NCBI GenBank assembly: GCA_032622095.1 | Contig: CP136068.1 | Location: forward strand, 62,332,025-62,396,024 | Direction of reading: 5' to 3' | Source of the DNA: Siphonodentalium dalli | Lineage: Eukaryota; Mollusca; Scaphopoda; Gadilida; Siphonodentaliidae | Length of the DNA stretch: 64,000 nucleotides | Part shown: one piece after another, positions 1-64,000 of the stretch | How positions within the stretch are numbered: position 1 is the stretch's first letter | How the letters are laid out: every line of letters begins with the position of its first letter | The notes under the pieces: generated by a model | Told to the model about the DNA's origin: nothing | Seen by the model: the letters and a program-made list of their open reading frames with translations, nothing else | Databases searched by the model: none | Position numbers and translations under genes: made by a program

Positions 1-3000
1 TGCCTGCCACTCTTATATGAGTTCATCCATGTCCACTATTATATGAGTTGCTGACTGTCCACTCTTATATGAGTTGCTGCATGTCCACTCTTATATGAAT
101 TCATCCTTGTCCACTCTTATATGAGTTCCTCCCTGTCCACTCTTATATGACTTCCTTCCTGTCCACTCTTATATGAATTCCTCCTTGTCCACTCTTATAT
201 GAGTTCATCCCTGTCCACTCTTATATGAGTTCCTCACAGTCCACTCTTATATGAGTTCCTCGTTGTCCACTCTTATATGAGTCCCTCATTGTCCACTCTT
301 ATATGAGTTGCTGCCTGTCCACTCGTATATGAGTTCCCCCCTGTCCACTCTTGTGAGTTCCCCATTGTCCACTCGAATATGAGTTGCTGCCTGTCCACTA
401 TTATATGAGTTCCAGTCTGTCCACTCTTATATGAGTTCCTCATTTTCCACTCTTATATGAGTTCCTCATTTTCCACTCTAATATGAGTTCCTCCCAGTCC
501 ACTCTTATATGAGTTGCTGCCTGTCCACTATTATATGAGTCCCAGCCTGTCCACTCTTGTGTGAATTCCTGCATGTCCACTCTTATATGAGTTCTTCCCT
601 GTCCACTCTTATATGAGTTCCTCCCTGTCCACTCTTATATGAGTTCCTCCCTGTCCACTCTTATATGAGTTCCTCCCTGTCCACTCTTATATGAGTACCT
701 CCCTGTCCACTCTTATATGAGTTCCTCCCTGTCCACTCTTATATGAGTTCCTCCCTGTCCACTCTTATATTAGTTCCTCCCTGTACACTCATATATTAGT
801 TTCTCCCTGTCCTCTCTTATATGAGTTCCTCCCTGTCCACTCTTATATGAGTTGCTGCCTGTCCACTCGTATATGAGTTCCAGCCTGTTCACTCTTATGA
901 GTTCCTCCATGTCCACTCTTATGAGTTCCTCCCAGTCCACTCTTATATGATTTCCTGCCTGTCCACTCTTATGAGTTCCAGCCTGTCCACTCTTATGAGT
1001 TCCAGCCTGTCCACTCTTATATGAGTTCCTCCCTGTCCACTCTTATATTAGTTCCTCCCTGTCCACTCTTATATTAGTTCCTCCCTGTCCACTCTTATAT
1101 TAGTTCCTCCCTGTCCACTCATATATTAGTTCCTCCCTGTCCACTCTTATATTAGTTCCTCCCTGTCCACTCTTATATTAGTTCCTCCATGTACACTCAT
1201 ATATTAGTTCCTCCCTGTCCTCTCTTATGAGTTCCTCCCTGTCCACTATTATATGAGTTGCTGCCTGTCCACTCTTATATGAGTTCCTGCCTGTCCACTC
1301 TTATATGAGTTCCTGCCTGTCCACTCTTATGAGTTCCTCCATGTCCACTCTTATGAGTTCCTCACTGTCCACTCTTATGAGTTCCTCCCTGTCCACTCTT
1401 ATATGAGTTTTTTGCCTGTCCACTCTTATATGAGTTCCAGCCTGTCCACTCTTATATGAGTTCCTGCCTGTCCACTCTTACATGAGTTCCTCCCTGTCCA
1501 CTTTATATGAGTTCCTCCCTGTCCACTCTTATATGGGTTCCTGCCTGTCCACTCTTATATGAGTTCCCCCTTGTCCACTCTTATATGAGTTGCTCCCTGT
1601 CCATTCTTTAATGAGTTTCTCCCTGTCCACTCAAATATGAGTTCCTCCCTGACCACTCTTATATGTGTTCCTGCCTGTCCACTCTTATATGAGTTCCTCC
1701 CAGTCCACTCTTATGAGTTCCTCCCTGTCCACTCTTATATGAGTTTCTCCATGTCCACTCTTATATGAGTTCCTCCCTGACCACTCTTTTATGAGTTCCT
1801 GCCTGTCCACTCTTATATGAGTTCCCCCTGTCTACTATTATGAGTTCCTCCCTGTCCACTCTTATATGAGTTCCCCCTGTCCACTCTTATATGAGTTCCT
1901 CCATGTCCACTCTTATATGAGTTCCTCCATGTCCACCCTTATATGAGTTCCTCCGTGTCCAATCTTATATGAGTTGCTGCCTGCCACTCTTATATGAGTT
2001 CATCCATGTCCACTCTTATATTAGTTCCTCCCTGTCCACTCTTATATGAGTTGCTGCCTGCCACTAGTATATGAGTTCATCCATGTCCACTCTTATATGA
2101 GTTGCTGTCTGTCCACTCTTATATGAGTTCCTCCTGTCCACTCTTATATGAGTTGGACCTGTATACTCTTATATGAGTTCCTCCCTGTCCACTCTTATAT
2201 GAGTTGCTGAATGTCCACTCTTATTTGAGTTGCTGCATGTCCACTCTTATATGAATTCATCCTTGTCCACTCTTATATGAGTTCCTCCCTGTCCACTCTT
2301 ATATGACTTCCTGCCTGTCCACTCTTATATGAATTCCTCCTTGTCCACTCTTATATGAGTTCATCCCTGTCCACTCTTATATGAGTTCCTCACAGTCCAC
2401 TCTTATATGAGTTCCTCATTGTCCACTCTTATATGAGTCCCTCATTGTCCACTCTTATATGAGTTGCTGCCTGTCCACTCGTATATGAGTTCCCCCTGTC
2501 CACTCTTGTGAGTTCCCCATTGTCCACTCGAATATGAGTTGCTGCCTGTCCACTATTATATGAGTTCCAGTCTGTCCACTCTTATATGAGTTCCTCATTT
2601 TCCACTCTTATATGAGTTCCTCATTTTCCACTCTTATATGAGTTCCTCCCAGTCCACTCTTATATGAGTTGCTGCCTGTCCACTATTATATGAGTCCCAG
2701 CCTGTCCACTCTTGTGTGAATTCCTGCATGTCCACTCTTATATGAGTTCTTCCCTGTCCACTCTTATATGAGTTCCTCCCTGTCCACTCTTATATGAGTT
2801 CCTCCCTGTCCACTCTTATATGAGTTCCTCCCTGTCCACTCTTATATGAGTTCCTCCCTGTCCACTCTTATATGAGTTCCTCCCTGTCCACTCTTATATG
2901 AGTTACTCCCTGTCCACTCTTATATTAGTTCCTCCCTGTACACTCATATATTAGTTTCTCCCTGTCCTCTCTTATATGAGTTCCTCCCTGTCCACTCTTA

Positions 3001-6000
3001 TATGAGTTGCTGCCTGTCCACTCGTATATGAGTTCCAGCCTGTCCACTCTTATGAGTTCCTCCATGTCCACTCTTATGAGTTCCTCCTTGTCCACTCTTA
3101 TATGAGTTGCTGACTGTCCACTCTTATATGAGTTGCTGCATGTCCACTCTTATATGAATTCATCCTTGTCCACTCTTATATGAGTTCCTCCCTGTCCACT
3201 CTTATATGACTTCCTGCCTGTCCACTCTTATATGAATTCCTCCTTGTCCACTCTTATATGAGTTCATCCCTGTCCACTCTTAAATGAGTTCCTCACAGTC
3301 CACTCTTATATGAGTTCCTTATTGTCCATTCTTATATGAGTCCCTCATTGTCCACTCTTATATGAGTTGCTGCCTTTCCACTCGTATATGAGTTCCCCCC
3401 TGTCCACTCTTGTGAGTTCCCCATTGTCCACTCGAATATGAGTTGCTGCCTGTCCACTATTATATGAGTTCCAGTCTGTCCACTCTTATATGAGTTCCTC
3501 ATTTTCCACTCTTATATGAGTTCCTCATTTTCCACTCTTATATGAGTTCCTCCCAGTCCACTCTTATATGAGTTGCTGCCTGTCCACTATTATATGAGTC
3601 CCAGCCTGTCCACTCTTGTGTGAATTCCTGCATGTCCACTCTTATATGAGTTCTTCCCTGTCCACTCTTATATGAGTTCCTCCCTGTCCACTCTTATATG
3701 AGTTCCTCCCTTTCCACTCTAATATGAGTTCCTCCCTGTTCACTCTTATATGAGTTCCTCCCTGTCCACTCTTATATGAGTTCCTCCCTGTCCACTCTTA
3801 TATTAGTTCCTCCCTGTACACTCATATATTAGTTACTCCCTGTCCTCTCTTATATGAGTTCCTCCCTGTCCACTCTTATATGAGTTCCAGCCTGTCCACT
3901 CTTATGAGTTCCTCCATGTCCACTCTTATGAGTTCCTCCCTGTCCACTCTTATATGAGTTCCTGCCTGTCCACTCTTATGAGTTCCAGCCTGTCCACTTA
4001 TTGAGTTCCAGCCTGTCCACTCTTATATGAGTTCCTCCCTGTCCACTCTTATATTAGTTCCTCCCTGTCCACTCTTATATTAGTTCCTCCCTGTCCACTC
4101 TTATATTAGTTCCTCCCTGTCCACTCTTATATTAGTTCCTCCCTGTCCACTCTTATATTAGTTCCTCCCTGTCCACTCTTATTTTAGTTCCTCCATGTAC
4201 ACTCATATATTAGTTCCTCCCTGTCCTCTCTTATGAGTTCCTCCCTGTCCACTATTATATGAGTTGCTGCCTGTCCACTCGTATATGAGTTCCAGCCTGT
4301 CCACTCTTATATGAGTTCCTGCCTGTCCACTCTTATATGAGTTCCTGCCTGTCCACTCTTATGAGTTCCTCCATGTCCACTCTTATGAGTTCCTCACTGT
4401 CCACTCTTATGAGTTCCTCACTGTCCACTCTTATATGAGTTCCTGCCTGTCCACTCTTATATGAGTTCCAGCCTGTCCACTCTAATATGAGTTCCTGCCT
4501 GTCCACTCTTACATGAGTTCCTCCCTGTCCACTTTATATGAGTTCCTCCCTGTCCACTCTTATATGGGTTCCTGCATGTCCACTCTTATATGAGTTCCCC
4601 CTTGTCCACTCTTATATGAGTTGCTCCCTGTCCATTCATTAATGAGTTTCTCCCTGTCCACTCAAATATGAGGTCCTCCCTGACCACTCTTATATGTGTT
4701 CCTGCCTGTCCACTCTTATATGAGTTCCTCCCAGTCCACTCTTATGAGTTCCTCCCTGTCCACTCTTATATGAGTTTCTCCATGTCCACTCTTATATGAG
4801 TTCCTCCCTGACCACTCTTATAAGAGTTCCTGCCTGTCCACTCTTATATGAGTTCCCCCTGTCTACTCTTATGAGTTCCCCCCTGTCCACTCTTATATGA
4901 GTTCCCCCTGTCCACTCTTATATGAGTTGCTCCATGTCAACTCTTATATGAGTTCCTCCATGTCCACCCTTTAATATATGAGTTCCTCCCTGTCCAATCT
5001 TATATGAGTTGCTGCCTGCCACTCTTATATGAGTTCATCCATGTCCACTCTTATATGAGTTCCTCCCTGTCCACTCTTATATGAGTTGCTGCCTGCCACT
5101 AGTATATGAGTTCATCCATGTCCACTCTTATATGAGTTGCTGTCTGTCCACTCTTATATGAGTTCCTCCTGTCCACTCTTATATGAGTTGAACCTGTATA
5201 CTCTTATATGAGTTCCTCACTGTCCACTCTTATATGAGTTGCTGACTGTCCACTCTTATATGAGTTGCTGCATGTCCACTCTTATATGAATTCATCCTTG
5301 TCCACTCTTATATGAGTTCCTCCCTGTCCACTCTTATATGACTTCCTGCCTGTCCACTCTTATATGAATTCCTCCTTGTCCACTCTTATATGAGTTCATC
5401 CCTGTCCACTCTTATATGAGTTCCTCACAGTCCACTCTTATATGAGTTCCTCATTGTCCACTCTTATATGAGTCCCTCATTGTCCACTCTTATATGAGTT
5501 GCTGCCTGTCCACTCGTATATGAGTTCCCCCCTGTCCACTCTTGTGAGTTCCCCATTGTCCACTCGAAAATGAGTTGCTGCCTGTCCACTATTATATGAG
5601 TTCCAATCTGTCCACTCTTATATGAGTTCCTCATTTTCCACTCTTATATGAGTTCCTCATTTTCCACTCTTATATGAGTTCCTCCCAGTCCACTCTTATA
5701 TGAGTTGCTGCCTGTCCACTATTATATGAGTCCCAGCCTGTCCACTCTTGTGTGAATTCCTGCATGTCCACTCTTATATGAGTTCTTCCCGGTCCACTCT
5801 TATATGAGTTCCTCCCTGTCCACTCTTATATGAGTTCCTCCCTGTCCACTCTTATATGAGTTCCTGCCTGTCCACTCTTATATGAGTTGCTGCCTGTCCA
5901 CTCTTATATAAGTTCTTCCCTGTCCACTCTTATATTAGTTCCTCCCTGCCCACTCTTATATTAGTTCCTCCCTGTCCACTCATATATTAGTTCCTCCCTG

Positions 6001-8743
6001 TCCTCTCTTATATGAGATCCTCCCTGTCCACTCTTATATGAGTTGGACCTGTATACTCTTATATGATTTCCTCCCTGTCCATTCTTATGAGTTGCTAACT
6101 GTCAACTCTACTATGAGTTCCTCCTTGTCCACTCTTATATGAGTTGCTGCCTGCCACTATTATATGAGTTCATCCATGTCCACTCTTATATGAGTTTCTG
6201 TCTGTACACTCTTATATGAGTTCCTCCCTGTCCACTCTTATATGAGTTCCTGCCTGTCCACTCTTATATGAGTTGCTGCCTGTCCACTCTTATATAAGTT
6301 CTTCCCTGTCCACTCTTATATTAGTTCCTCCCTGCCCACTCTTATATTAGTTCCTCCCTGTCCACTCATATATTAGTTCCTCCCTGTTCTCTCTTATATG
6401 AGATCCTCCCTGTCCACTCTTATATATATATCTTTATTTCGTCCAATTCAGTTCCTCCCTGTCCACTCTTATGAGTTGCTGACTGTCCACTCTTATATGA
6501 GTTCCTCCTTGTCCACTCTTATATGAGTTGCTGCCTGCCACTATTATATGAGTTTATCCATGTCCACTCTTATATGAGTTTCTGTCTGTACACTCTTATA
6601 TGAGTTCCTCCCTGTCCACTCTTATATGAGTTGCTGAGTGTCCACTCTTATATCAGTTCCTGTCTGTCCACTCTTATATGAGTTCCTCCCTGTCCACTCT
6701 TATATGAGTTGCTGCCTGCCACTATTATATGAGTTCCTCCCTATCCACTCTTATATGAGTTCCTGCATGTCCACTCTTATATGAGTCCCAGCCTGTCCAC
6801 TCTTATATGAATTCCTGCATGTCCACTCTTATATGAGTTCTTCCCTGTCCACTCTTATATGAGTTCCTCCCTGTCAACTCTTATGAGTTCCTCCCTGTAC
6901 ACTGTTATATGAGTACCTGCCTGTCCACTCTTATATGAGTTGCAGCCTGTCTACTCTTATATGAATTACTCCCTGTCCACTCTTATATGAGTTCCCCCCT
7001 GTCCACTCTTATATTAGTTCCTCCCTGTTCTCTCTTATATTAGTTCCTCCCTGTACACTCATATATTAATTCCTCCCTGTCCTCTCTTATATGAGTTCCT
7101 GCCTGTCCACTCTTATATGAGTTCCTGCCTGTCCACTCTTATGAGTTCCTCCATGTCCACTCTTATGAGTTCCTCACTGTCCACTCTTATGAGTTCCTCC
7201 CTGTGCACTCTTATATGAGTTCCTGCCTGTCCACTCTTATATGAGTTCCAGCCTGTCCACTCTTATATGAGTTCCTGCCTGTCCACTCTTACATGAGTTC
7301 CTCCCTGTCCACTTTATATGAGTTCCTCCTTGTCCACTCTTATATGGGTTCCTGCCTGTCCACTCTTATATGAGTTCCCCCTTGTCCACTCTTATATGAG
7401 TTGCTCCCTGTCCATTCTTTAATGAGTTTCTCCCTGTCCACTCAAATATGAGTTCCTCCCTGACCACTCTTATATGTGTTCCTGCCTGTCCACTCTTATA
7501 TGAGTTCCTCCCAGTCCACTCTTATGAGTTCCTCCCTGTCCACTCTTATATGAGTTCCTCCCTGACCACTCTTATAAGAGTTCCTGCCTGTCCACTCTTA
7601 TATGAGTTCCCCATGTCTACTCTTATGAGTTCCTCCCTGTCCACTCTTATATGAGTTCTCCCTGTCCACTCTTATATGAGTTCCTCCATGTCAACTCTTA
7701 TATGAGTTCCTCCATGTCCACCCTTTAATATATGAGTTCTTCCCTGTCCAATCTTATATGAGTTGCTGCCTGCCACTCTTATATGAGTTCATCCATGTCC
7801 ACTCTTATATGAGTTCCTCCCTGTCCACTCTTATATGAGTTGCTGCCTGCCACTAGTATATGAGTTCATCCATGTCCACTCTTATATGAGATGCTGTCTG
7901 TCCACTCTTATTTGAGTTCCTCCTGTCCACTCTTATATGAGTTGGACCTGTATACTCTTATATGAGTTCCTCACTGTCCACTCTTATATGAGTTGCTGAC
8001 TGTCCACTCTTATATGAGCTGCTGCATGTCCACTCTCATATGAATTCATCCTTGTCCACTCTTATATGAGTTCCTCCCTGTCCACTCTTATATTAGTTCC
8101 TCCCTGTCCACTCTTATATTAGTTCCTCCCTGTACACTCATATATTAATTCCTCACTGTCCACTCTTATATGAGTTCCTGCCTGTCCACTCTTATATGAG
8201 TTCCAGCCTGTCCACTCGTATATGAGTTCCTGCCTGTCCACTCTTACATGAGTTCCTCCCTGTCCACTTTATATGAGTTCCTCCCTGTCCTCTCTTATAT
8301 GGGTTCCTGCCTGTCCACTCTTATATGAGTTCCCCCTTGTCCACTCTTATAAGAGTTGCTCCCTGTCCATTCTTTAATGAGTTTCTCCCTGTCCACTCAA
8401 ATATGAGTTCCTCCCTGACCACTCTTATATGTGTTCCTGCCTGTCCACTCTTATATGAGTTCCTCCCAGTCCACTCTTATGAGTTCCTCCCTGTCCACTC
8501 TTATATGAGTTTCTCCATGTCCACTCTTATATGAGTTCCTCCCTGACCACCCTTATATGAGTTCCTGCCTGTCCACTCTTATATGAGTTCCCCCTGTCTA
8601 CTCTTATGAGTTCCTCCCTGTCCACTCTTATATGAGTTCCCCCTGTCCACTCTTGTATGAGTTCCTCCATGTCCACTCTTATATGAGTTCCTCCATGTCC
8701 ACCCTTATATGAGTTCCTCCCTGTCCAATCTTATATGAGTTGC
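1..8743. repeat. ~8 kb super-repeat, copy 1
   Basis: This stretch is copied downstream with its rare variants in the same order. Positions 1-1697 match 8744-10440 at an offset of 8743: the GTCCACTATT unit at 31 recurs at 8774, and the rare TATGATTTCC unit at 949 recurs at 9692. Positions 2491-7100 match 10438-15072 at offsets of 7946-7972, including the unique non-satellite scrap at 6426. About 0.8 kb (1698-2490) has no counterpart in copy 2. Internally, 2100-3080 also resembles 1-900, so copy 1 is itself built from older duplications. Confidence 0.85.
6426..6450 (-). mobile_element. ~25-bp retroposon 3'-end scrap (copy 1)
   Basis: Between a normal CACTCTTATAT and GTTCCTCCC the array is broken by about 25 bp of unrelated sequence. 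Read on the minus strand it is GAATTGGACGAAATAAAG followed by (AT)n running into the satellite. This looks like the extreme 3' end of a retroposon, with a polyadenylation-like AATAAA and an AT tail, truncated almost to nothing. Its last ~20 nt resemble the left edge of the insertion at 38283 (GGAGGAATAAAG plus (AT)n). The family is not identified. Confidence 0.5.
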
Positions 8744-11700
8744 TGCCTGCCACTCTTATATGAGTTCATCCATGTCCACTATTATATGAGTTGCTGACTG
8801 TCCACTCTTATATGAGTTCCTCCCTGTCCACTCTTATATGACTTCCTTCCTGTCCACTCTTATATGAATTCCTCCTTGTCCACTCTTATATGAGTTCATC
8901 CCTGTCCACTCTTATATGAGTTCCTCACAGTCCACTCTTATATGAGTTCCTCGTTGTCCACTCTTATATGAGTTCCTCATTGTCCACTCTTATATGAGTT
9001 GCTGCCTGTCCACTCGTATATGAGTTCCCCCCTGTCCACTCTTGTGAGTTCCCCATTGTCCACTCGAATATGAGTTGCTGCCTGTCCACTATTATATGAG
9101 TTCCAGTCTGTCCACTCGAATATGAGTTGCTGCCTGTCCACTATTATATGAGTTCCAGTCTGTCCACTCTTATATGAGTTCCTCATTTTCCACTCTTATA
9201 TGAGTTCCTCATTTTCCACTCTAATATGAGTTCCTCCCAGTCCACTCTTATATGAGTTGCTGCCTGTCCACTATTATATGAGTCCCAGCCTGTCCACTCT
9301 TGTGTGAATTCCTGCATGTCCACTCTTATATGAGTTCTTCCCTGTCCACTCTTATATGAGTTCCTCCCTGTCCACTCTTATATGAGTTCCTCCCTGTCCA
9401 CTCTTATATGAGTTCCTCCCTGTCCACTCTTATATGAGTACCTCCCTGTCCACTCTTATATGAGTTCCTCCCTGTCCACTCTTATATGAGTTCCTCCCTG
9501 TCCACTCTTATATTAGTTCCTCCCTGTACACTCATATATTAGTTTCTCCCTGTCCTCTCTTATATGAGTTCCTCCCTGTCCACTCTTATATGAGTTGCTG
9601 CCTGTCCACTCGTATATGAGTTCCAGCCTGTCCACTCTTATGAGTTCCTCCATGTCCACTCTTATGAGTTCCTCCCAGTCCACTCTTATATGATTTCCTG
9701 CCTGTCCACTCTTATGAGTTCCAGCCTGTCCACTCTTATGAGTTCCAGCCTGTCCACTCTTATATGAGTTCCTCCCTGTCCACTCTTATATTAGTTCCTC
9801 CCTGTCCACTCTTATATTAGTTCCTCCCTGTCCACTCTTATATTAGTTCCTCCCTGTCCACTCATATATTAGTTCCTCCCTGTCCACTCTTATATTAGTT
9901 CCTCCCTGTCCACTCTTATATTAGTTCCTCCATGTACACTCATATATTAGTTCCTCCCTGTCCTCTCTTATGAGTTCCTCCCTGTCCACTATTATATGAG
10001 TTGCTGCCTGTCCACTCTTATATGAGTTCCTGCCTGTCCACTCTTATATGAGTTCCTGCCTGTCCACTCTTATGAGTTCCTCCATGTCCACTCTTATGAG
10101 TTCCTCACTGTCCACTCTTATGAGTTCCTCCCTGTCCACTCTTATATGAGTTTTTTGCCTGTCCACTCTTATATGAGTTCCAGCCTGTCCACTCTTATAT
10201 GAGTTCCTGCCTGTCCACTCTTACATGAGTTCCTCCCTGTCCACTTTATATGAGTTCCTCCCTGTCCACTCTTATATGGGTTCCTGCCTGTCCACTCTTA
10301 TATGAGTTCCCCCTTGTCCACTCTTATATGAGTTGCTCCCTGTCCATTCTTTAATGAGTTTCTCCCTGTCCACTCAAATATGAGTTCCTCCCTGACCACT
10401 CTTATATGTGTTCCTGCCTGTCCACTCTTATATGAGTTCCCCCTGTCCACTCTTGTGAGTTCCCCATTGTCCACTCGAATATGAGTTGCTGCCTGTCCAC
10501 TATTATATGAGTTCCAGTCTGTCCACTCTTATATGAGTTCCTCATTTTCACTCTTATATGAGTTCCTCATTTTCCACTCTTATATGAGTTCCTCCCAGTC
10601 CACTCTTATATGAGTTGCTGCCTGTCCACTATTATATGAGTCCCAGCCTGTCCACTCTTGTGTGAATTCCTGCATGTCCACTCTTATATGAGTTCTTCCC
10701 TGTCCACTCTTATATGAGTTCCTCCCTGTCCACTCTTATATGAGTTCCTCCCTGTCCACTCTTATATGAGTTCCTCCCTGTCCACTCTTATATGAGTTCC
10801 TCCCTGTCCACTCTTATATGAGTTCCTCCCTGTCCACTCTTATATGAGTTCCTCCCTGTCCACTCTTATATTAGTTCCTCCCTGTACACTCATATATTAG
10901 TTTCTCCCTGTCCTCTCTTATATGAGTTCCTCCCTGTCCACTCTTATATGAGTTGCTGCCTGTCCACTCGTATATGAGTTCCAGCCTGTCCACTCTTATG
11001 AGTTCCTCCATGTCCACTCTTATGAGTTCCTCCTTGTCCACTCTTATATGAGTTGCTGACTGTCCACTCTTATATGAGTTGCTGCATGTCCACTCTTATA
11101 TGAATTCATCCTTGTCCACTCTTATATGAGTTCCTCCCTGTCCACTCTTATATGACTTCCTGCCTGTCCACTCTTATATGAATTCCTCCTTGTCCACTCT
11201 TATATGAGTTCATCCCTGTCCATTCTTATATGAGTTCCTCACAGTCCACTCTTATATGAGTTCCTCATTGTCCATTCTTATATGAGTCCCTCATTGTCCA
11301 CTCTTATATGAGTTGCTGCATTTCCACTCGTATATGAGTTCCCCCCTGTCCACTCTTGTGAGTTCCCCATTGTCCACTCGAATATGAGTTGCTGCCTGTC
11401 CACTATTATATGAGTTCCAGTCTGTCCACTCTTATATGAGTTCCTCATTTTCCACTCTTATATGAGTTCCTCATTTTCCACTCTTATATGAGTTCCTCCC
11501 AGTCCACTCTTATATGAGTTGCTGCCTGTCCACTATTATATGAGTCCCAGCCTGTCCACTCTTGTGTGAATTCCTGCATGTCCACTCTTATATGAGTTCT
11601 TCCCTGTCCACTCTTATATGAGTTCCTCCCTGTCCACTCTTATATGAGTTCCTCCCTTTCCACTCTAATATGAGTTCCTCCCTGTTCACTCTTATATGAG

Positions 11701-38282: not shown

Positions 38283-38291
38283 TATATATAT

Positions 38292-44014: not shown

Positions 44015-44147
44015 TGGGGGTAGCAGGAAGACAGCCCGATAGGGCTAGGCTAACCCCCAACAATATACAACATTACCTTTTATGTGTTACTTCCATTGTA
44101 TTATTCATGTGTATATTGTAAATAAATTATCCTATCCTATCCTATCC
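44015..44147 (+). mobile_element. 133-bp 5'-truncated retroposon 3' end with (TATCC)4 tail
   Basis: Non-satellite insert between GAGTTCC and CCCTGTCTAC. Other copies of this unit (for example near 47874) give the empty site. It begins with a strong nested hairpin: TGGGGG/CCCCCA outer arms (44015-44020, 44054-44059), TAGC/GCTA (44021-44024, 44049-44052), AGCCC/GGGCT inner arms (44033-44037, 44042-44046). AT-rich sequence, AATAAA (44121-44126) and TATCC repeated four times (44128-44147) follow. A 3' hairpin plus a short tandem tail is typical of LINEs, or SINEs borrowing a LINE tail, inserted by target-primed reverse transcription. Its tail and hairpin differ from those of the 4.1 kb LINE, so it belongs to another family. 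Confidence 0.75.
44121..44126 (+). terminator. AATAAA upstream of the (TATCC)4 tail
   Basis: Sits 1 bp before the tail repeats of the small insertion. It may be a polyadenylation-like signal or simply part of the conserved 3' end. Confidence 0.35.
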
Positions 44148-51000: not shown

Positions 51001-51804
51001 ACACTCATATATTAGTTCCTCCCTGTCCTCTCTTATGAGTTCCTCCCTGTCCACTATTATATGAGTTGCTGCCTGTCCACTCGTATATGAGTTCCAGCCT
51101 GTCCACTCGTATATGAGATCCAGCCTGTCCACTCTTATATGAGTTCCTGCCTGTCCACTCTTATATGAGTTCCTGCCTGTCCACTCTTGTGAGTTCCTCC
51201 ATGTCCACTCTTATGAGTACCTCCCTGTCCACTCTTATGAGTTCCTGCCTGTCCACTCTTATATGAGTTCCAGCCTGTCCACTCTTATATGAGTTCCTGC
51301 CTGTCCACTCTTATATGAGTTCCTCCCTGTCCACTTTATATGAGTTCCTCCCTGTCCACTCTTATATGAGTTCCTGCCTGTCCACTCTTATATGAGTTCC
51401 CCCTTGTCCACTCTTATATGAGTTGCTCCCTGTCCATTCTTTTATGAGTTTCTCCCTGTCCACTCAAATATGAGTTCCTCCCTGACCACTCTTATATGTG
51501 TTCCTGCCTGTCCACTCTTATATGAGTTCCTCACAGTCCACTCTTATGAGTTCCTCCCTGTCCACTCTTATATGAGTTTCTCCATGTCCACTCTTATATG
51601 AGTTCCTCCCTGACCACTCTTATATGAGTTCCTGCCTGTCCACTCTTATATGAGTTCCCCCTGTCTACTCTTATGAGTTCCTCCCTGTCCACTCTTATAT
51701 GAGTTCCCCCTGTCCACCCTTATATGAGTTCCTCCATGTCCACTCTTATATGAGTTCCTCCATGTCCACCCTTATATGAGTTCCTCCCTGTCCAATCTTA
51801 TATG
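48021..51804. repeat. ~3.8 kb higher-order repeat, copy 1
   Basis: Period set by the TATGCG unit (48021 to 51805, 3784 bp) and confirmed by the GATGTCTG unit (48427 to 52210, 3783 bp). It contains a nested ~795-bp duplication (GCTACC units at 49226 and 50021), which is why it is longer than the next copy. Confidence 0.75.
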
Positions 51805-54800
51805 CGTTGCTGCCTGCCACTCTTATATGAGTTCATCCATGTCCACTCTTATATGAGTTGTTGTCTGTCCACTCTTATATGAGTTCCTCCCTGTCCACTC
51901 TTATATGAGTTCCTCCCTGTCCACTCTTATATGAGTTCCTAACTGTCCACTCTTATGAGTTCCTCCTGTCCACTCTTATATGAGTTTCTCCATGTCCACT
52001 CTTATATGAGTTCCTCCCTGACCACTCTTATATGAGTTCATGCCTGTCCACTCTTATATGAGTTCCCCCTGTCTACTCTTATGAGTTCCTCCCTGTCCAC
52101 TCTTATGAGTTCCCCTGTCCACTCTTATATGAGTTCCTCCCTGTCCAATCTTATATGAGTTGCTGCCTGCCACTCTTATATGAGTTCATCCATGTCCACT
52201 CTTATATGAGTTGATGTCTGTCCACTCTTATATGAGTTCCTCCCTGTCCACTCTTATGAGTTGCTGACTGTCCACTCTTATATGAGTTCCTCCTTGTCCA
52301 CTCTTATATGAGTTCCTCCCTGTCAACTCAAATATGAGTTCCTCCCTGACCACTCTTATATGTGTTCCTGCCTGTCCACTCTTATATGAGTTCCTCCCAG
52401 TCCACTCTTATGAGTTCCTCCTTGTCCACTCTTATATGAGTTTCTCCATGTCCACTCTTATATGAGTTCCTCCCTGACCACTCTTATATGAGTTCCTCCC
52501 TGTCCACTCTTATATGAGTTCCCCTGTCCACTCTTATATGAGTTCCTCCCTGTCCACTCTTATATGAGTTCCCCTGTCCACTCTTATATGATTTCCTCAT
52601 TTCCACTCTTATATGAGTTCCTCCCAGTCCACTCTTATATGAGTTGCTGCCTGTCCACTAGTATATGAGTCCCAGCCTGTCCACTCTTATATGAATTCCT
52701 GCATGTCCACTCTTATATGAGTTCTTCCCTGTCCACTCTTATATGAGTTCCTCCCTGTCAACTCGTATGAGTTCCTCCCTGTACACTGCTATATGAGTTC
52801 CTGCCTGTCAACTCGTATGAGTTCCTGCCTGTCCACTCTTATATGAGTTCCTGCCTGTCCACTCTTATATGGGTTCCTCCCTGTCCAATCTTATATGAAT
52901 TCCTCCCTGTCCACTCTTATATGAGTTCCTCCCTGTCCACTCTTATATGAGTTCCTCCCTGTCCACTCTTATATGAGTTCCTCCCTGTCCACTCTTATAT
53001 TAGTTCCTCCCGGTACACTCATATATTAGTTCCTCCCTGTCCTCTCTTATATGAGTTCCTCCCTGTCCACTCTTATATGAGTTGCTACCTGTCCACTCGT
53101 ATATGAGTTCCAGCCTGTCCACTCTTATGAGTTCCTGCATGTCCACTCTTATGAGTTCCTCCCTGTCCACTCTTATATGAGTTCCTGCCTGTCCACTCTT
53201 ATATGAGTTCCTGCCTGTCCACTCTTATGAGTTCCAGCCTGTCCACTCTTATATGAGTTCCTCATTTCCACTCTTATATGAGTTCCTCCCAGTCCACTCT
53301 TATATGAGTTGCTGCCTGTCCACTATTATATGAGTCCCAGTCTGTCCACTCTTATATGAATTCCTGCATGTCCACTCTTATATGAGTTCTTCCCTGTCCA
53401 CTCTTATATGAGTTCCTCCCTGTCAACTCTTATGAGTTCCTACCTGTACACTGCTATATGAGTTCCTGCCTGTCCACTCTTATATGAGTTCCTGCCTGTC
53501 CACTCTTATATGAGTTACTGCCTGTCCACTCTTATATGAGTTCCTCCCTGTCCACTCTTATATGAGTTCCTCCCTGTCCACTCGTATATGAGTTCCTCCC
53601 TGTCCACTCTTATATGAGTTCCTCCCTGTCCACTCTTATATTAGTTCCTCCCTGTACACTCATATATTAGTTCCTCTATGTCCTCTATGAGTTGTTGCCT
53701 GTCCACTATTATATGAGTCCCAGCCTGTTCACTCTTATATGAATTCCTGCATGTCCACTCTTATATGAGTTCTTCCCTGTCCACTGTTATATGAGTTCCT
53801 CCCTGTCCACTCTTATTTGAGATCCTCCCTGTCCACTATTATATGAGTTCCATCCTGTCCACTCTTATGAGTTCATCCCTGTCCACTCTTATATGAGTTC
53901 CTCCCTGTCCACTCTTATGAGTTCCTCCCTGTCCACTCTAATATGAGTTCCTCCCTGTCCACTCTTATATGAGTTCCTCCCTGTCCACTCTTATATGATT
54001 TCCTCCCTTTCCACTCTTATATGAGTTCCTCCCTGTCCACTCTTATATGAGTTGCTGCCTGTCCACTCGTATATGAGTTCCAGCCTTCCACTCTTATGAG
54101 TTCCTCCATGTCCACTCTTATGAGTTCCTCCCTGTCCACTCTTATATGAGTTCCTGCCTGTCCAGTCTTATGAGTTCCAGCCTGTCCACTCTTATGAGTT
54201 CCAGCCTGTCCACTCTTATATGAGTTCCCCCCTGTCCACTCTTATATTAGTTCCTCCCTGTCCACTATTATATTAGTTCCTCCCTGTCCACTCTTATATT
54301 AGTTCCTCCCTGTCCACTCTTATATTAGTTCCTCCCTGTCCACTCTTATACTAGTTACTCCCTGTCCACTCTTATATTAGTTCCTCCATGTACACTCATA
54401 TATTAGTTCCTCCCTGTCCTCTCTTATGAGTTCCTCCCTGTCCACTATTATATGAGTTGCTGCCTGTCCACTCGTATATGAGTTCCAGCCTGTCCACTCG
54501 TATATGAGTTCCAGCCTGTCCACTCGTATATGAGTTCCAGCCTGTCCACTCTTATATGAGTTCCTGCCTGTCCACTCTTATATGAGTTCCTGTCCGTCCA
54601 CTCTTGTGAGTTCCTCCATGTCCACACTTATGAGTACCTCCCTGTCCACTCTTATGAGTTCCTCCCTGTCCACTCTTATATGAGTTCCTGCCTGTCCACT
54701 CTTATATGAGTTCCAGCCTGTCCACTCTTATATGAGTTCCTGCCTGTCCACTCTTATATGAGTTCCTCCCTGTCCACTTTATATGAGTTCCTCCCTGTCC

Positions 54801-55247
54801 ACTCTTATATGAGTTCCTGCCTGTCCACTCTTATATGAGTTCCCCCTTGTCCACTCTTATATGAGTTGCTCCCTGTCCATTCTTTTATGAGTTTCTCCCT
54901 GTCCACTCAAATATGAGTTCCTCCCTGACCACTCTTATATGTGTTCCTGCCTGTCCACTCTTATATGAGTTCCTCCCAGTCCACTCTTATGAGTTCCTCC
55001 CTGTCCACTCTTATATGAGTTTCTCCATGTCCACTCTTATATGAGTTCCTCCCTGACCACTCTTATATGAGTTCCTGCCTGTCCACTCTTATAAGAGTTC
55101 CCCCTGTCTACTCTTATGAGTTCCTCCCTGTCCACTCTTATATGAGTTCCCCCTGTCCACTCTTATATGAGTTCCTCCATGTCCACTCTTATATGAGTTC
55201 CTCCATGTCCACCCTTATATGAGTTCCTCCCTGTCCAATCTTATATG
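51805..55247. repeat. ~3.4 kb higher-order repeat, copy 2
   Basis: Period of 3443 bp from the TATGCG unit and 3444 bp from the GATGTCTG unit. The segment near 53690-54010 has an unusual order: TCCTCTATGAGTTGTTGCC, then ATCC, CATCC and CTAATATG units. It looks like a local rearrangement not shared with copy 1. Confidence 0.75.
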
Positions 55248-56649
55248 CGTTGCTGCCTGCCACTCTTATATGAGTTCATCCATGTCCACTCTTATATGAG
55301 TTGTTGTCTGTCCACTCTTATATGAGTTCCTCCCTGTCCACTCTTATATGAGTTCCTCCCTGTCCACTCTTATATGAGTTCCTACCTGTCCACTCTTATG
55401 AGTTCCTCCCTGTCCACTCTTATATGAGTTTCTCCATGTCCACTCTTATATGAGTTCCTCCCTGACCACTCTTATATGAGTTCATGCCTGTCCACTCTTA
55501 TATGAGTTCCCCCTGTCCACTCTTATGAGTTCCTCCCTGTCCACTCTTATGAGTTCCCCTGTCCACTCTTATATGAGATCCTCCCTGTTCAATCTTATAT
55601 GAGTTGCTGCCTGCCACTCTTATATGAGTTCATCCATGTCCACTCTTATATGAGTTGATGTCTGTCCACTCTTATATGAGTTCCTCCCTGTCCACTCTTA
55701 TGAGTTGCTGACTGTCCACTCTTATATGAGTTCCTCCTTGTCCACTCTTATATGAGTTCCTCCCTGTCAACTCAAATATGAGTTCCTCCCTGACCACTCT
55801 TATATGTGTTCCTGCCTGTCCACTCTTATATGAGTTCCTCCCAGTCCACTCTTATGAGTTCCTCCTTGTCCACTCTTATATGAGTTTCTCCATGTCCACT
55901 CTTATGTGAGTTCCTCCCTGACCACTCTTATATGAGTTCCTCCCTGTCCACTCTTATATGAGTTCCCCTGTCCACTCTTATATGAGTTCCTCCCTGTCCA
56001 CTCTTATATGAGTTCCCCTGTCCACTCTTATATGATTTCCTCATTTCCACTCTTATATGAGTTCCTCCCAGTGCACTCTTATATGAGTTGCTGCCTGTCC
56101 ACTATTATATGAGTCCCAGCCTGTCCACTCTTATATGAATTACTGCATGTCCACTCTTATATGAGTTCTTCCCTGTCCACTCTTATATGAGTTCCTCCCT
56201 GTCAACTCGTATGAGTTCCTCCCTGTACACTGCTATATGAGTTCCTGCCTGTCCACTCTTATATGAGTTTCTGCCTGTCCACTCTTATATGGGTTCCAGC
56301 CTGTCCACTCTTATATGGGTTCCTCCCTGTCCACTCTTATATGAATTCCTCCCTGTCCACTCTTATATGAGTTCCTCCCTGTCCACTCTTATATGAGTTC
56401 CTCCCTGTCCACTCTTATATGAGTTCCTCCCTGTCCACTCTTATATTAGTTCCTCCCTGTACACTCATATATTAGTTCCTCCCTGTCCTCTCTTATATGA
56501 GTTCCTGCCTGTCCACTCTTATATGAGTTGCTACCTGTCCACTCGTATATGAGTTCCAGCCTGTCCACTCTTATGAGTTCCTGCATGTCCACTCTTATGA
56601 GTTCCTCCCTGTCCACTCTTATATGAGTTCCTGCCTGTCCACTCTTATG

Positions 56650-58714
56650 AGTTCCAGCCTGTCCACTCTTATGAGTTCCAGCCTGTCCACTCTTATATTA
56701 GTTCCTCCCTGTCCACTCTTATATTAGTTCCTCCCTGTCCACTCTTATATTAGTTCCTCTCTGTCCACTCTTATATTAGTTCATCCATGTACACTCATCT
56801 ATTAGTTCCTCCCTGTCCTCTCTTATGAGTTCCTCCCTGTCCACTATTATATGAGTTCCCCCTGTCCACTCTTATATGAGTTGCTCCCTGTCCATTCTTT
56901 TATGAGTTTCTCCCTGTCCACTCAAATATGAGTTCCTCCCTGACCACTCTTATATGTGTTCCTGCCTGTCCACTCTTATATGAGTTCCTCCCAGTCCACT
57001 CTTATGAGTTCCTCCATGTCCACTCTTATATGAGTTTCTCCATGTCCACTCTTAAATGAGTTCCTCCCTGACCACTCTTATATGAGTTCATGCCTGTCCA
57101 CTCTTATATGAGTTCCCCCTGTCTACTCTTATGAGTTCCTCCCTGTCCACTCTTATATGAGTTCCCCCTGTCCACTCTTATATGAGTTTCTCCATGTCCA
57201 CTCTTATATGAGTTCCTCCATGTCCACCCTTATATGAGTTCCTCCCTGTCCAATCTTATATGCGTTGCTGCCTGCCACTCTTATATGAGTTCATCCATGT
57301 CCACTCTTATATGAGTTGATGTCTGTCCACTCTTATATGAGTTCCTCCCTGTCCACTCTTATGAGTTGCTGACTGTCCACTCTTATATGAGTTCCTCCTT
57401 GTCCACTCTTATATGAGTTCCTCCCTGTCAACTCAAATATGAGTTCCTCCCTGACCTCTCTTATATGTGTTCCTGCCTGTCCACTCTTATGAGTTCCTCC
57501 CAGTCCACTCTTATGAGTTCCTCCCTGTCCACTCTTATATGAGTTTCTCCATGTCCACTCTTATATGAGTTCCTCCCTGACCACTCTTATATGAGTTCCT
57601 GCCTGTCCACTCTTATATGAGTTCCCCTGTCCACTCTTATATGAGTTCCTCATTTCCACTCTTATATGAGTTCCTCCCAGTCCACTCTTATATGAGTTGC
57701 TGCCTGTCCACTATTATATGAGTCCCAGCCTGTCCACTCTTATATGAATTCCTGCATGTCCACTCTTATATGAGTTCTTCCCTGTCCACTCTTATATGAG
57801 TTCCTCCCTGTCAACTCTTATGAGTTCCTCCCTGTACACTGCTATATGAGTTCCTGCCTGTCCACTCTTATATGAGTTCCTGCCTGTCCACTCTTATATG
57901 AGTTCATGCCTGTCCACTCTTATATGGGTTCCTCCCTGTCCACTCTTATATGAGTTCCTCCCTGTCCACTCTTATATGAGTTCCTGCCTGTCCACTCTTA
58001 TATGAGTTCCTCCCTGTCCACTCTTATATGAGTTCCTCCCTGTCCACTCTTATATTAGTTCCTCCCTGTCCTCTCTTATATGAGTTCATCCCTGTCCACT
58101 CTTATATGAGTTGCTGCCTGTCCACTCGTATATGAGTTCCGGCCTGTCCACTCTTATGAGTTCCTCCATGTCCACTATTATGAGTTCCTCCCTGTCCACT
58201 CTTATATGAGTTCCTGCCTGTCCACTCTTATGAGTTCCAGCCTGTCCACTCTTATAAGATCCAGCCTGTCCACTCTTATATGAGTTCCTCCCTGTCCACT
58301 CTTATGAGTTCCAGCCTGTCCACTCTTATGATTTCCAGCCTGTCCACTCTTATATTAGTTCCTCCCTGTCCACTCTTATATTAGTTCCTCCCTGTCCACT
58401 CTTATATTAGTTCCTCTCTGTCCACTCTTATATTAGTTCCTCCATGTACACTCATATATTAGTTCCTCTCTGTCCTCTCTTATGAGTTCCTCCCTGTCCA
58501 CTATTATATGAGTTGCTGCCTGTCCACTCGTATATGAGTTCCAGCCTGTCCACTCTTATATGAGTTCCTGCCTGTCCACTCTTATATGAGTTCCTGCCTG
58601 TCCACTCTTATGAGTTCCTCCATGTCCACTCTTATGAGTACCTGCCTGTCCACTCTTATGACTTCCTCCCTGTCCACTCTTATATGAGTTCCTGCCTGTC
58701 CACTCTTATATGAG
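56650..58714. repeat. 2.06 kb block copied 5286 bp downstream (copy 1)
   Basis: Matches 61936-64000 at a constant offset of 5286 bp. Checked pairs: the CATCTATTAG unit (TACACTC at 56790 and 62076), the TTCCGGCC unit (58141 and 63427) and the TATGACTTCC unit (58661 and 63947). No indel was found between these points and substitutions are few, for example TTAAATGAG at 57052 against TTATATGAG. The copy reaches the window end and probably continues. Confidence 0.88.
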
Positions 58715-59660
58715 TTCCAGCCTGTCCACTCTTATATGAGTTCCTGCCTGTCCACTCTTATATGAGTTCTTCCCTGTCCACTTTATATGAGTTCCTCCAT
58801 GTCCACTCTTATATGAGTTCCTGCCTGTCCACTCTTATATGAGTTCCCCTTTGTCCACTCTTATATGAGTTGCTCACTGTCCATTCTTTTATGAGTTTCT
58901 CCCTGTCCACTCAAATATGAGTTCCTCCCTGACCACTCTTATATGTGTTCCTGCCTGTCCACTCTTATATGAGTTCCTCCCAGTCCACTCTTATGAGTTC
59001 CTCCATGTCCACTCTTATATGAGTTTCTCCATGTCCACTCTTATATGAGTTCCTCCATGTCCACTCTTATATGAGTTCCTCCATGTCCACCCTTATATGA
59101 GTTCCTTCCTGTCCAATCTTATATGCGTTGCTGCCTGCCACTCTTATATGAGTTCATCCATGTCCACTCTTATATGAGTTGATGTCTGTCCACTCTTATA
59201 TGAGCTCCTCCCTGTCCACTCTTATGAGTTGCTGACTGTCCACTCTTATATGAGTTCCTCCTTGTCCACTCTTATATGAGTTCCTCCCTGTCAACTCAAA
59301 TATGAGTTCCTCCCTGACCTCTCTTATATGTGTTCCTGCCTGTCCACTCTTATATGAGTTCCTCCCAGTCCACTCTTATGAGTTCCTCCCTGTCCACTCT
59401 TATGTGAGTTTCTCCATGTCCACTCTTATATGAGTTGCTGCCTGTCCACTCGTATATGAGTTCCAGCCTGTCCACTCGTATATGAGTTCCAGCCTGTCCA
59501 CTCTTATATGAGTTCCTGCCTGTCCACTCTTATGAGTACCTCCCTGTCCACTCTTATGAGTTCCTCCCTGTCCACTCTTATATGAGTTCCTGCCTGTCCA
59601 CTCTTATATGAGTTCCAGCCTGTCCACTCTTATATGAGTTCCTGCCTGTCCACTCTTATA

Positions 59661-61345
59661 TGAGTTCCTCCCTGTCCACTTTATATGAGTTCCTCCCTGT
59701 CCACTCTTATATGAGTTCCTGCCTGTCCACTCTTATATGAGTTCCCCCTTGTCCACTCTTATATGAGTGGCTCCCTGTCCATTCTTTTATGAGTTTCTCC
59801 CTGTCCACTCAAATATGAGTTCCTCCCTGACCACTCTTATATGTGTTCCTGCCTGTCCACTCTTATATGAGTTCCTCCCAGTCCACTCTTTTGAGTTCCT
59901 CCATGTCCACTCTTATATGAGTTTCTCCATGTCCACTCTTATATGAGTTCCTCCCTGACCACTCTTATATGAGTTCCTGCCTGTCCACTCTTATATGAGT
60001 TCCCCCTGTCTACTCTTATGAGTTCCTCCCTGTCCACTCTTATATGAGTTCCCCCTGTCCACTCTTATATGAGTTTCTCCATGTCCACTCTTATATGAGT
60101 TCCTCCATGTCCACCCTTATATGAGTTCCTCCCTGTCCAATCTTATATGCGTTGCTGCCTGCCAATCTTATATGAGTTCATCCATGTCCACTCTTATATG
60201 AGTTGATGTCTGTCCACTCTTATATGAGTTCCTCCCTGTCCACTCATATGAGTTCCAGCCTGTCCACTCTTATGAGTTCCAGCCTGTCCACTCTTATATT
60301 AGTTCCTCCCTGTCCACTCTTATATTAGTTCCTCCCTGTCCACTCTTATATTAGTTCCTCTCTGTCCACTCTTATATTAGTTCATCCATGTACACTCATC
60401 TATTAGTTCCTCCCTGTCCTCTCTTATGAGTTCCTCCCTGTCCACTATTATATGAGTTCCCCCTGTCCACTCTTATATGAGTTGCTCCCTGTCCATTCTT
60501 TTATGAGTTTCTCCCTGTCCACTCAAATATGAGTTCCTCCCTGACCACTCTTATATGTGTTCCTGCCTGTCCACTCTTATATGAGTTCCTCCCAGTCCAC
60601 TCTTATGAGTTCCTCCATGTCCACTCTTATATGAGTTTCTCCATGTCCACTCTTATATGAGTTCCTCCCTGACCACTCTTATATGAGTTCCTGCCTGTCC
60701 ACTCTTATATGAGTTCCCCCTGTCTACTCTTATGAGTTCCTCCCTGTCCACTCTTATATGAGTTCCCCCTGTCCACTCTTATATGAGTTTCTCCATGTCC
60801 ACTCTTATATGAGTTCCTCCATGTCCACCCTTATATGAGTTCCTCCCTGTCCAATCTTATATGCGTTGCTGCCTGCCACTCTTATATGAGTTCATCCATG
60901 TCCACTCTTATATGAGTTGATGTCTGTCCACTCTTATATGAGTTCCTCCCTGTCCACTCTTATGAGTTGCTGACTGTCCACTCTTATATGAGTTCCTCCT
61001 TGTCCACTCTTATATGAGTTCCTCCCTGTCAACTCAAATATGAGTTCCTCCCTGACCTCTCTTATATGTGTTCCTGCCTGTCCACTCTTATGAGTTCCTC
61101 CCAGTCCACTCTTATGAGTTCCTCCCTGTCCACTCTTATATGAGTTTCTCCATGTCCACTCTTATATGAGTTCCTCCCTGACCACTCTTATATGAGTTCC
61201 TGCCTGTCCACTCTTATATGAGTTCCCCTGTCCACTCTTATATGAGTTCCTCATTTCCAGTCTTATATGAGTTCCTCCCAGTCCACTCTTATATGAGTTG
61301 CTGCCTGTCCACTATTATATGAGTCCCAGCCTGTCCACTCTTATA
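59661..61345. repeat. 1685-bp tandem duplication, copy 1
   Basis: Exact offset of 1685 bp at every marker tested: CCACTTTATA 59676 and 61361, GAGTGGCTCC 59765 and 61450, TATGCG 60150 and 61835, TACACTCATC 60391 and 62076, TATGCG 60864 and 62549. Direct tandem, so this is the cleanest and probably youngest duplication in the window. Confidence 0.92.
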
Positions 61346-63030
61346 TGAGTTCCTCCCTGTCCACTTTATATGAGTTCCTCCCTGTCCACTCTTATATGAG
61401 TTCCTGCCTGTCCACTCTTATATGAGTTCCCCCTTGTCCACTCTTATATGAGTGGCTCCCTGTCCATTCTTTTATGAGTTTCTCCCTGTCCACTCAAATA
61501 TGAGTTCCTCCCTGACCACTCTTATATGTGTTCCTGCCTGTCCACTCTTATATGAGTTCCTCCCAGTCCACTCTTTTGAGTTCCTCCATGTCCACTCTTA
61601 TATGAGTTTCTCCATGTCCACTCTTATATGAGTTCCTCCCTGACCACTCTTATATGAGTTCCTGCCTGTCCACTCTTATATGAGTTCCCCCTGTCTACTC
61701 TTATGAGTTCCTCCCTGTCCACTCTTATATGAGTTCCCCCTGTCCACTCTTATATGAGTTTCTCCATGTCCACTCTTATATGAGTTCCTCCATGTCCACC
61801 CTTATATGAGTTCCTCCCTGTCCAATCTTATATGCGTTGCTGCCTGCCAATCTTATATGAGTTCATCCATGTCCACTCTTATATGAGTTGATGTCTGTCC
61901 ACTCTTATATGAGTTCCTCCATGTCCACTCATATGAGTTCCAGCCTGTCCACTCTTATGAGTTCCAGCCTGTCCACTCTTATATTAGTTCCTCCCTGTCC
62001 ACTCTTATATTAGTTCCTCCCTGTCCACTCTTATATTAGTTCCTCTCTGTCCACTCTTATATTAGTTCATCCATGTACACTCATCTATTAGTTCCTCCCT
62101 GTCCTCTCTTATGAGTTCCTCCCTGTCCACTATTATATGAGTTCCCCCTGTCCACTCTTATATGAGTTGCTCCCTGTCCATTCTTTTATGAGTTTCTCCC
62201 TGTCCACTCAAATATGAGTTCCTCCCTGACCACTCTTATATGTGTTCCTGCCTGTCCACTCTTATATGAGTTCCTCCCAGTCCACTCTTATGAGTTCCTC
62301 CATGTCCACTCTTATATGAGTTTCTCCATGTCCACTCTTATATGAGTTCCTCCCTGACCACTCTTATATGAGTTCCTGCCTGTCCACTCTTATATGAGTT
62401 CCCCCTGTCTACTCTTATGAGTTCCTCCCTGTCCACTCTTATATGAGTTCCCCCTGTCCACTCTTATATGAGTTTCTCCATGTCCACTCTTATATGAGTT
62501 CCTCCATGTCCACCCTTATATGAGTTCCTCCCTGTCCAATCTTATATGCGTTGCTGCCTGCCACTCTTATATGAGTTCATCCATGTCCACTCTTATATGA
62601 GTTGATGTCTGTCCACTCTTATATGAGTTCCTCCCTGTCCACTCTTATGAGTTGCTGACTGTCCACTCTTATATGAGTTCCTCCTTGTCCACTCTTATAT
62701 GAGTTCCTCCCTGTCAACTCAAATATGAGTTCCTCCCTGACCTCTCTTATATGTGTTCCTGCCTGTCCACTCTTATGAGTTCCTCCCAGTCCACTCTTAT
62801 GAGTTCCTCCCTGTCCACTCTTATATGAGTTTCTCCATGTCCACTCTTATATGAGTTCCTCCCTGACCACTCTTATATGAGTTCCTGCCTGTCCACTCTT
62901 ATATGAGTTCCCCTGTCCACTCTTATATGAGTTCCTCATTTCCACTCTTATATGAGTTCCTCCCAGTCCACTCTTATATGAGTTGCTGCCTGTCCACTAT
63001 TATATGAGTCCCAGCCTGTCCACTCTTATA
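61346..63030. repeat. 1685-bp tandem duplication, copy 2
   Basis: Second copy, ending where GTCCACTCTTATATGA continues with ATTCC (63030) and not with GTTCC as at 61345. Differences are single bases, for example TTTCCAGTC at 61257 against TTTCCACTC at 62942, and CTCCCTG near 60236 against CTCCATG near 61921. Confidence 0.92.
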
Positions 63031-64000
63031 TGAATTCCTGCATGTCCACTCTTATATGAGTTCTTCCCTGTCCACTCTTATATGAGTTCCTCCCTGTCAA
63101 CTCTTATGAGTTCCTCCCTGTACACTGCTATATGAGTTCCTGCCTGTCCACTCTTATATGAGTTCCTGCCTGTCCACTCTTATATGAGTTCATGCCTGTC
63201 CACTCTTATATGGGTTCCTCCCTGTCCACTCTTATATGAGTTCCTCCCTGTCCACTCTTATATGAGTTCCTGCCTGTCCACTCTTATATGAGTTCCTCCC
63301 TGTCCACTCTTATATGAGTTCCTCCCTGTCCACTCTTATATTAGTTCCTCCCTGTCCTCTCTTATATGAGTTCATCCCTGTCCACTCTTATATGAGTTGC
63401 TGCCTGTCCACTCGTATATGAGTTCCGGCCTGTCCACTCTTATGAGTTCCTCCATGTCCACTATTATGAGTTCCTCCCTGTCCACTCTTATATGAGTTCC
63501 TGCCTGTCCACTCTTATGAGTTCCAGCCTGTCCACTCTTATAAGATCCAGCCTGTCCACTCTTATATGAGTTCCTCCCTGTCCACTCTTATGAGTTCCAG
63601 CCTGTCCACTCTTATGATTTCCAGCCTGTCCACTCTTATATTAGTTCCTCCCTGTCCACTCTTATATTAGTTCCTCCCTGTCCACTCTTATATTAGTTCC
63701 TCTCTGTCCACTCTTATATTAGTTCCTCCATGTACACTCATATATTAGTTCCTCTCTGTCCTCTCTTATGAGTTCCTCCCTGTCCACTATTATATGAGTT
63801 GCTGCCTGTCCACTCGTATATGAGTTCCAGCCTGTCCACTCTTATATGAGTTCCTGCCTGTCCACTCTTATATGAGTTCCTGCCTGTCCACTCTTATGAG
63901 TTCCTCCATGTCCACTCTTATGAGTACCTGCCTGTCCACTCTTATGACTTCCTCCCTGTCCACTCTTATATGAGTTCCTGCCTGTCCACTCTTATATGAG
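61936..64000. repeat. 2.06 kb block copied from 5286 bp upstream (copy 2)
   Basis: Counterpart of 56650-58714, cut off by the window end. Its first part overlaps the 1685-bp tandem copy, so the two duplications are nested. Confidence 0.88.

What the first reader, a model, noticed from the sequence alone, without database searches (positions are those of the whole stretch)
1..64000. A >59 kb, single-orientation 26-bp satellite running off both ends
About 92% of the window is one minisatellite with no inversion and no change of unit. The consensus lacks CpG, is about 73% pyrimidine on one strand and has C far above G. Arrays this long are usually centromeric, pericentromeric, subtelomeric or heterochromatic. 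A 26-bp period is short for a classic centromeric satellite. Which of these it is cannot be told from sequence alone.
Basis: partly seen in the sequence, partly recalled or inferred. Interest (0 to 1): 0.6.

Follow-up and report, generated by a model that had tools for sequence, protein, structure and literature searches.

The report
Megabase inverted satellite, probably a centromere region
The window is a slice of a 1.3-million-base block of one 26-letter repeat, in the interior of one chromosome of a mollusc- or worm-like animal, that flips direction once near its middle; it is probably centromeric or next-to-centromere satellite DNA, a known kind of sequence in an unusual arrangement.

Summary
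In detail: 58,925 of 64,000 bases (92.1%) are one 26-bp satellite ("A"), on one strand, running off both ends. Three insertions interrupt it: a young CR1/L2-type LINE, an 824-bp AT-rich piece and a 129-bp LINE- or SINE-like tail. Two statements do not survive outside the window. The block does invert: on contig C8 it runs minus from about 61.47-61.49 to 61.9078 Mb and plus from there to about 62.76 Mb, meeting head-to-head at a gapless junction. The unit also changes: an unlike 25-bp satellite ("B") adjoins it at 61.11-61.44 Mb, and a further minus-strand A block lies at about 60.4-60.75 Mb. Subtelomeric is excluded, since C8 is 189.9 Mb long. Major A arrays were found only on C8 and, diverged, on C7; B is on C1, C2 and C8. 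Homogenisation is local. Hox genes show the animal is a lophotrochozoan; the species was not identified. Most likely this is the (peri)centromeric satellite of chromosome C8, kept uniform by local amplification, with a "macro-dyad" layout like that described in Tribolium. CENP-A binding was not testable. It is a new satellite family of a known kind; the two-satellite dyad layout is the interesting part.

The parts
1..32291 (+). 26-bp satellite A, uninterrupted segment; contains near-identical tandem duplications of about 7,972, 8,743 and 2,865 bp
32292..36413 (+). Inserted non-LTR retrotransposon, CR1/L2-like by inspection (endonuclease + reverse transcriptase in one ORF, 3' tail without poly-A); likely target duplication CTCT on both sides. 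ORF about 32864-36058 with two in-frame stops (33398-33400 and 34151-34153)
32897..32929 (+). SGNVKPNPGP near the start of the LINE ORF, resembling a 2A-like translational recoding peptide
   Evidence: translation; reading as 2A-like is from own knowledge
36414..38285 (+). 26-bp satellite A segment
38286..39109 (.). 824-bp AT-rich insertion with TA/ACAT microsatellites, inside the TATAT part of a unit; origin unknown
39110..44016 (+). 26-bp satellite A segment
44017..44145 (+). 129-bp insertion ending in (TCCTA)n, like a truncated LINE or SINE 3' end
44146..64000 (+). 26-bp satellite A segment with near-identical duplications at 1,685, 3,601 and 5,286 bp; continues past the window to about C8:62.76 Mb

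Best explanation
The window is part of the (peri)centromeric satellite region of chromosome C8 of a lophotrochozoan. Shown: a ~1.3-Mb block of one 26-bp unit made of two head-to-head arms (about 0.42 Mb minus, 0.85 Mb plus), next to ~0.33 Mb of an unrelated or very distantly related 25-bp satellite that also switches strand, and ~0.25-0.4 Mb more of A; recent local tandem duplication keeps neighbours 98-100% alike; young retrotransposons have inserted. Inferred: the block works by bulk and layout rather than by coding. The repeats package heterochromatin and offer many short-dyad, CpG-free sites on which centromeric or heterochromatic chromatin is kept. The inverted arms arose by an old inversion or inverted duplication and are maintained by amplification within each arm.
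For: Interior Mb-scale block at about 0.32 of C8. Exact 143-bp A matches are confined to C8, at 60.48-60.57 and 61.49-62.63 Mb (complete list). A's second array is interior too, at 0.31 of C7. B forms Mb-scale blocks at 0.61 of C1 and 0.17 of C2, a smaller one at 0.36 of C2, and lies beside A on C8. Homogenisation is local: best identity of 500-bp pieces is 98.6% within the window, 92-95% to other C8 blocks, 86-90% to C7 and C5. The orientation junction is gapless and folds as a strong hairpin. Each unit carries the dyad ACTC-TTATAT-GAGT. Young LINE in the array. A comparable two-satellite macro-dyad layout in putative (peri)centromeres of Tribolium (PMC13081366).
Against: No CENP-A, H3K9me3 or cytogenetic data. 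A is not found in quantity on C1-C6, so it is not a genome-wide centromere satellite; centromeric arrays of C3-C6 and C9 were not found. B also lies 0.2-0.6 Mb from the left end of C8 and at two places on C2, so such blocks are not only centromeric. Period 26 bp is unusual for a centromere satellite.
Confidence: 0.55

Rival explanations
1. Non-centromeric constitutive heterochromatin: a minisatellite that expanded by unequal exchange or replication slippage at an interior site of C8 and persists neutrally, with no centromere role.
For: Chromosome-restricted distribution. B blocks occur at more than one place per chromosome, including near an end. Stepwise local duplications are what unequal exchange gives.
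Against: One satellite complex per A-bearing chromosome, at a plausible submetacentric position, with two unlike satellites side by side and repeated strand switches, more than a single neutral expansion needs.
Confidence: 0.35
2. Assembly artefact: array length or the strand switch produced by mis-joined or mis-collapsed reads.
For: Satellites are hard to assemble. TTAGGG repeats in inverted orientation about 0.6 Mb from the right end of C1 suggest at least one mis-oriented scaffold piece.
Against: No N in any sampled piece of the region, including 10 kb across the junction. The arms are not mirror copies (47% ungapped identity over 500 bp from the axis; best offset alignment 91.8%), so the switch is not a fold-back read artefact. 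The B switch point recurs three times with small differences. Insertions and local variant patterns differ along the array.
Confidence: 0.07
3. The arms are the two sides of an old chromosome-fusion or inversion breakpoint that captured a satellite, i.e. a rearrangement scar rather than a functional region.
For: Head-to-head arms with shared but diverged register (91.8% at an offset of 819 bp); n = 9 is low for a lophotrochozoan, so fusions are likely (own knowledge).
Against: No telomeric repeat at the junction; B shows several strand switches at other loci, so switching is a recurrent habit of these satellites.
Confidence: 0.1

Closest known systems
Tribolium madens TmSat1/TmSat2 (macro-dyad (peri)centromeric satellites, PMC13081366)
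   Same: Two satellites in one Mb-scale region; subarrays in inverted orientation; switch points with strong hairpin potential; at least for B, a conserved switch point copied several times.
   Different: Unit 25-26 bp versus 110-bp derived; one giant 1.3-Mb A dyad versus thousands of dyads of a few to 75 kb; two chromosomes for A versus all chromosomes; sequences appear unrelated (not aligned here).
Primate alpha-satellite HOR arrays with inversions (e.g. 3.2-Mb inversion on orangutan chromosome 20, PMC11062924)
   Same: Mb-scale arrays, local homogenisation, large inverted blocks, chromosome-specific variants.
   Different: 171-bp unit (own knowledge), CENP-B boxes, present on all chromosomes, proven CENP-A.
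Drosophila short-period centromeric satellites (AAGAG, AATAT; PMC8122249)
   Same: Short, asymmetric-strand units in large blocks with islands of other sequence and transposons.
   Different: 5-10 bp units; proven centromere function; sequence unrelated.

Membership tests
Satellite DNA (long tandem array) | Head-to-tail repeats over at least 100 kb, non-coding | tested here: met
Satellite DNA (long tandem array) | Concerted evolution (neighbours more alike than distant copies) | tested here: met
   98.6% within the window, 92-95% elsewhere on C8, 86-90% on C5 and C7
Centromeric satellite | Occupied by CENP-A/CenH3 nucleosomes | not testable with these tools
   no chromatin data
Centromeric satellite | One major block per chromosome at an interior site | tested here: inconclusive
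   A: one complex on C8, one on C7; B on C1, two places on C2, two on C8; nothing found on C3, C4, C6, C9
Centromeric satellite with CENP-B box | CENP-B box-like CpG motif in the unit | tested here: not met
   consensus has no CpG
Subtelomeric satellite | Lies near a chromosome end | tested here: not met
   C8:62.3 Mb of 189.9 Mb
Macro-dyad satellite organisation (Tribolium type) | Direct and inverted subarrays meeting at a switch point | tested here: met
Macro-dyad satellite organisation (Tribolium type) | Conserved, recurrent switch-point sequence | tested here: inconclusive
   met for B (three copies); only one switch point seen for A
Macro-dyad satellite organisation (Tribolium type) | Present at all (peri)centromeres | not tested
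   centromeres of this genome are not mapped

The most novel reading that the evidence does not exclude
Lophotrochozoan centromeres of this species are built from unlike 25-26-bp satellites that share only a layout: short units with an internal dyad, arranged in Mb-scale head-to-head arms around amplified hairpin switch points. Layout rather than sequence would mark the centromere, a second independent case of what is claimed so far only for Tribolium.
Probability: 0.17. Interest if true: 0.65.

Novelty: new member of a known kind. Interest (0 to 1): 0.4.

Why it matters
Centromere sequences of lophotrochozoans are hardly known (own knowledge; two literature searches found nothing on this satellite). 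This region gives two candidate satellites with exact coordinates and a gapless strand-switch junction, so FISH and CENP-A mapping could be done directly. If centromeric, it would test whether inverted-arm layout is a general feature of centromere-competent satellites. If not, it is still a clean case of chromosome-restricted satellite growth.

Tried and rejected
(1) Species: Hadrurus arizonensis (2.23 Gb, nine chromosomes) was considered because the totals match, and rejected. The mollusc hemocyanin test was uninformative. Chitons and limpets remain untested candidates. (2) Rfam SSU search of the genome failed twice; no Rfam family matches the window. (3) A recent palindrome at the junction: rejected, the arms are offset and about 8% diverged. 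(4) Common origin of A and B: best cyclic alignment gives p = 0.026-0.043 against shuffles, too weak to claim. (5) Coding repeat: rejected. (6) G-quadruplex or i-motif pattern: none in 32 kb.

Full report
WHAT IS IN THE WINDOW. The window is contig C8:62,332,025-62,396,024 of a 2,226,750,531-base genome in nine contigs; C8 is 189.87 Mb long. TRF finds one array, period 26, consensus CCTGTCCACTCTTATATGAGTTCCTC, 2495.8 copies, 82% matches, spanning 3-64000. Satellite covers 58,925 bp, 92.1%. Orientation is uniform: 948 forward and 0 reverse copies of a 16-bp core. Most units are 26 bp; 278 of 1,971 counted are 24 bp, lacking one TA of the TATA step. CpG observed/expected is 0.06. Open frames do not exceed 124 codons because 26 is not a multiple of three. 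The most variable columns are in CCTCCC; TGTCCACTCTTATA is 87-99% conserved per column in the window, and the same variable column recurs on C7 (the first six columns are biased by the anchor used). Each unit holds the inverted repeat ACTC-TTATAT-GAGT; three units fold slightly better than shuffles (z -3.2 and -2.0 on the two strands).

INTERRUPTIONS. (a) 32292-36413: a LINE. Pfam hits are Exo_endo_phos (4e-11) and RVT_1 (1.3e-33), and the RT domain matches LINE-1 ORF2 structures. By reading, it has a CR1/L2-like arrangement with no poly-A. The frame 32747-36058 is broken by two stops only. Its 3' end has many relatives on C1-C9, the best 98% identical, so it belongs to a recently mobile, dispersed family, not a centromere-specific one. 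(b) 38286-39109: AT-rich piece with microsatellites. (c) 44017-44145: short piece ending in TCCTATCCTATCCTATCC.

RECENT LOCAL DUPLICATION. Exact 200-mers recur at 7,972, 8,743 and 2,865 bp in the first 32 kb and at 1,685, 5,286 and 3,601 bp in the last 25 kb. The best match of a 500-bp piece elsewhere in the window has median identity 98.6% (up to 100%). Against other C8 blocks it is 91.7-94.6%, against C7 88.5%, against C5 86.5-89.6%. Amounts sampled differ between groups, so these are approximate, but the order is clear: homogenisation is local.

THE BLOCK BEYOND THE WINDOW. Samples along C8 and a complete list of exact 143-bp matches give: A minus between 60.40/60.45 and 60.70/60.80 Mb; satellite B (TGTGGTGGGGATACCTATATATGTG, 25 bp) 61.11-61.44 Mb, plus then minus; A minus from 61.45/61.49 to 61.9078 Mb; A plus from there to 62.75/62.77 Mb. 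Single samples at 61.80 and 62.20 Mb fell in non-satellite insertions. The switch reads ...GGACAGGGAGGAACTAATATCTTATATGAGTTCCTCCCTGTCC... with 15-bp perfect arms and a 13-base loop, and 141 bases around it fold at -64.6 kcal/mol (z -17). The arms are not a fresh palindrome: the best alignment is offset by 819 bp at 91.8%. So 'no inversion' is true of the window but false of the array.

ELSEWHERE IN THE GENOME. A is on C7 at about 66.535-66.82 Mb (minus, more diverged), and in small arrays on C5 at 134.08 and 11.27 Mb. The pattern lists are truncated in contig order, forward strand before reverse (inferred from comparing), so near-exact A dimers appear absent from C1-C4 and C6; C9 is covered only by the 143-bp exact search, with no match. 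B is on C1 (167.72-167.76 plus; 169.88-171.00 minus), C2 (39.89-40.70 minus; 84.39-84.44, minus then plus) and C8 (0.21-0.59 and 61.11-61.44 Mb). Inside the C8 B block the same minus-to-plus switch occurs three times within about 14 kb, with a 20-bp perfect-arm hairpin in each and 95% mean column identity over about 360 bp: a switch point that was itself copied.

WHAT ANIMAL. A Hox cluster lies on C7 at 77.3-78.8 Mb. Its genes include one with the Lox5 parapeptide KLTGP and several with Lox2/Lox4-type ends, which marks a lophotrochozoan (own knowledge of these signatures). Telomeric TTAGGG is abundant. Species not identified.

HOW IT MOST LIKELY WORKS. Shown: size, layout, local homogenisation, insertions. 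Inferred: this is the (peri)centromeric region of C8. Its bulk comes from repeated tandem duplication of kb-sized segments; the two arms came from an inversion or inverted duplication old enough to have diverged by several percent near the axis. Short-unit, CpG-free repeats with an internal dyad give many equivalent sites for nucleosomes. Dyad symmetry and inverted repeats are listed features of satellites (PMC8122249), and large inverted blocks are known in primate centromeres (PMC11062924). The closest layout is Tribolium, where major and minor satellites form macro-dyads in putative (peri)centromeres, which its authors say is documented only in that genus (PMC13081366). I do not file this block as a centromere: CENP-A occupancy is untested and A is not on all chromosomes. 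It is a satellite DNA family, new as far as two literature searches show, of a known kind.

LIMITS. Five of nine chromosomes have no known large satellite block here, which shows only that it was not found.

Noticed in passing
L175, L176, L177 (C8:61286980-61287340, 61292566-61292950, 61301147-61301507): The strand-switch point of 25-bp satellite B is conserved and present three times within about 14 kb, each with a 20-bp perfect-arm hairpin: an inversion junction that was itself amplified.
   Followed up: yes
C8:213169-590118: B also forms a block 0.2-0.6 Mb from the left end of C8, the same chromosome that carries it at 61.1-61.4 Mb.
   Followed up: no
window 32864-32929: The LINE's ORF begins MAIRLIILLILMSGNVKPNPGP: a hydrophobic stretch followed by a 2A-like NPGP motif, as reported for some non-LTR elements (own knowledge).
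   Followed up: no
C1:276277300-276278132: CCCTAA-oriented telomeric repeats lie about 0.6 Mb inside the right end of C1, the wrong way round for a right-hand telomere; possibly a mis-oriented terminal scaffold piece.
   Followed up: no
C7:77673389-77673568 and 77720567-77720746: Two Hox homeodomain exons in the C7 cluster have identical score and open-frame length (80% to the query, 86 aa), about 47 kb apart: a tandem Hox gene duplication or an uncollapsed haplotype.
   Followed up: no
window 38286-39109: 824-bp AT-rich insertion sits within the TATAT of a satellite unit; it has no clear terminal inverted repeats, and its source is unknown.
   Followed up: partly
L066 (C8:61450000-61450600): The spacer between the B block and the A minus arm is non-satellite and contains an almost perfect 44-bp tandem pair.
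   Followed up: no
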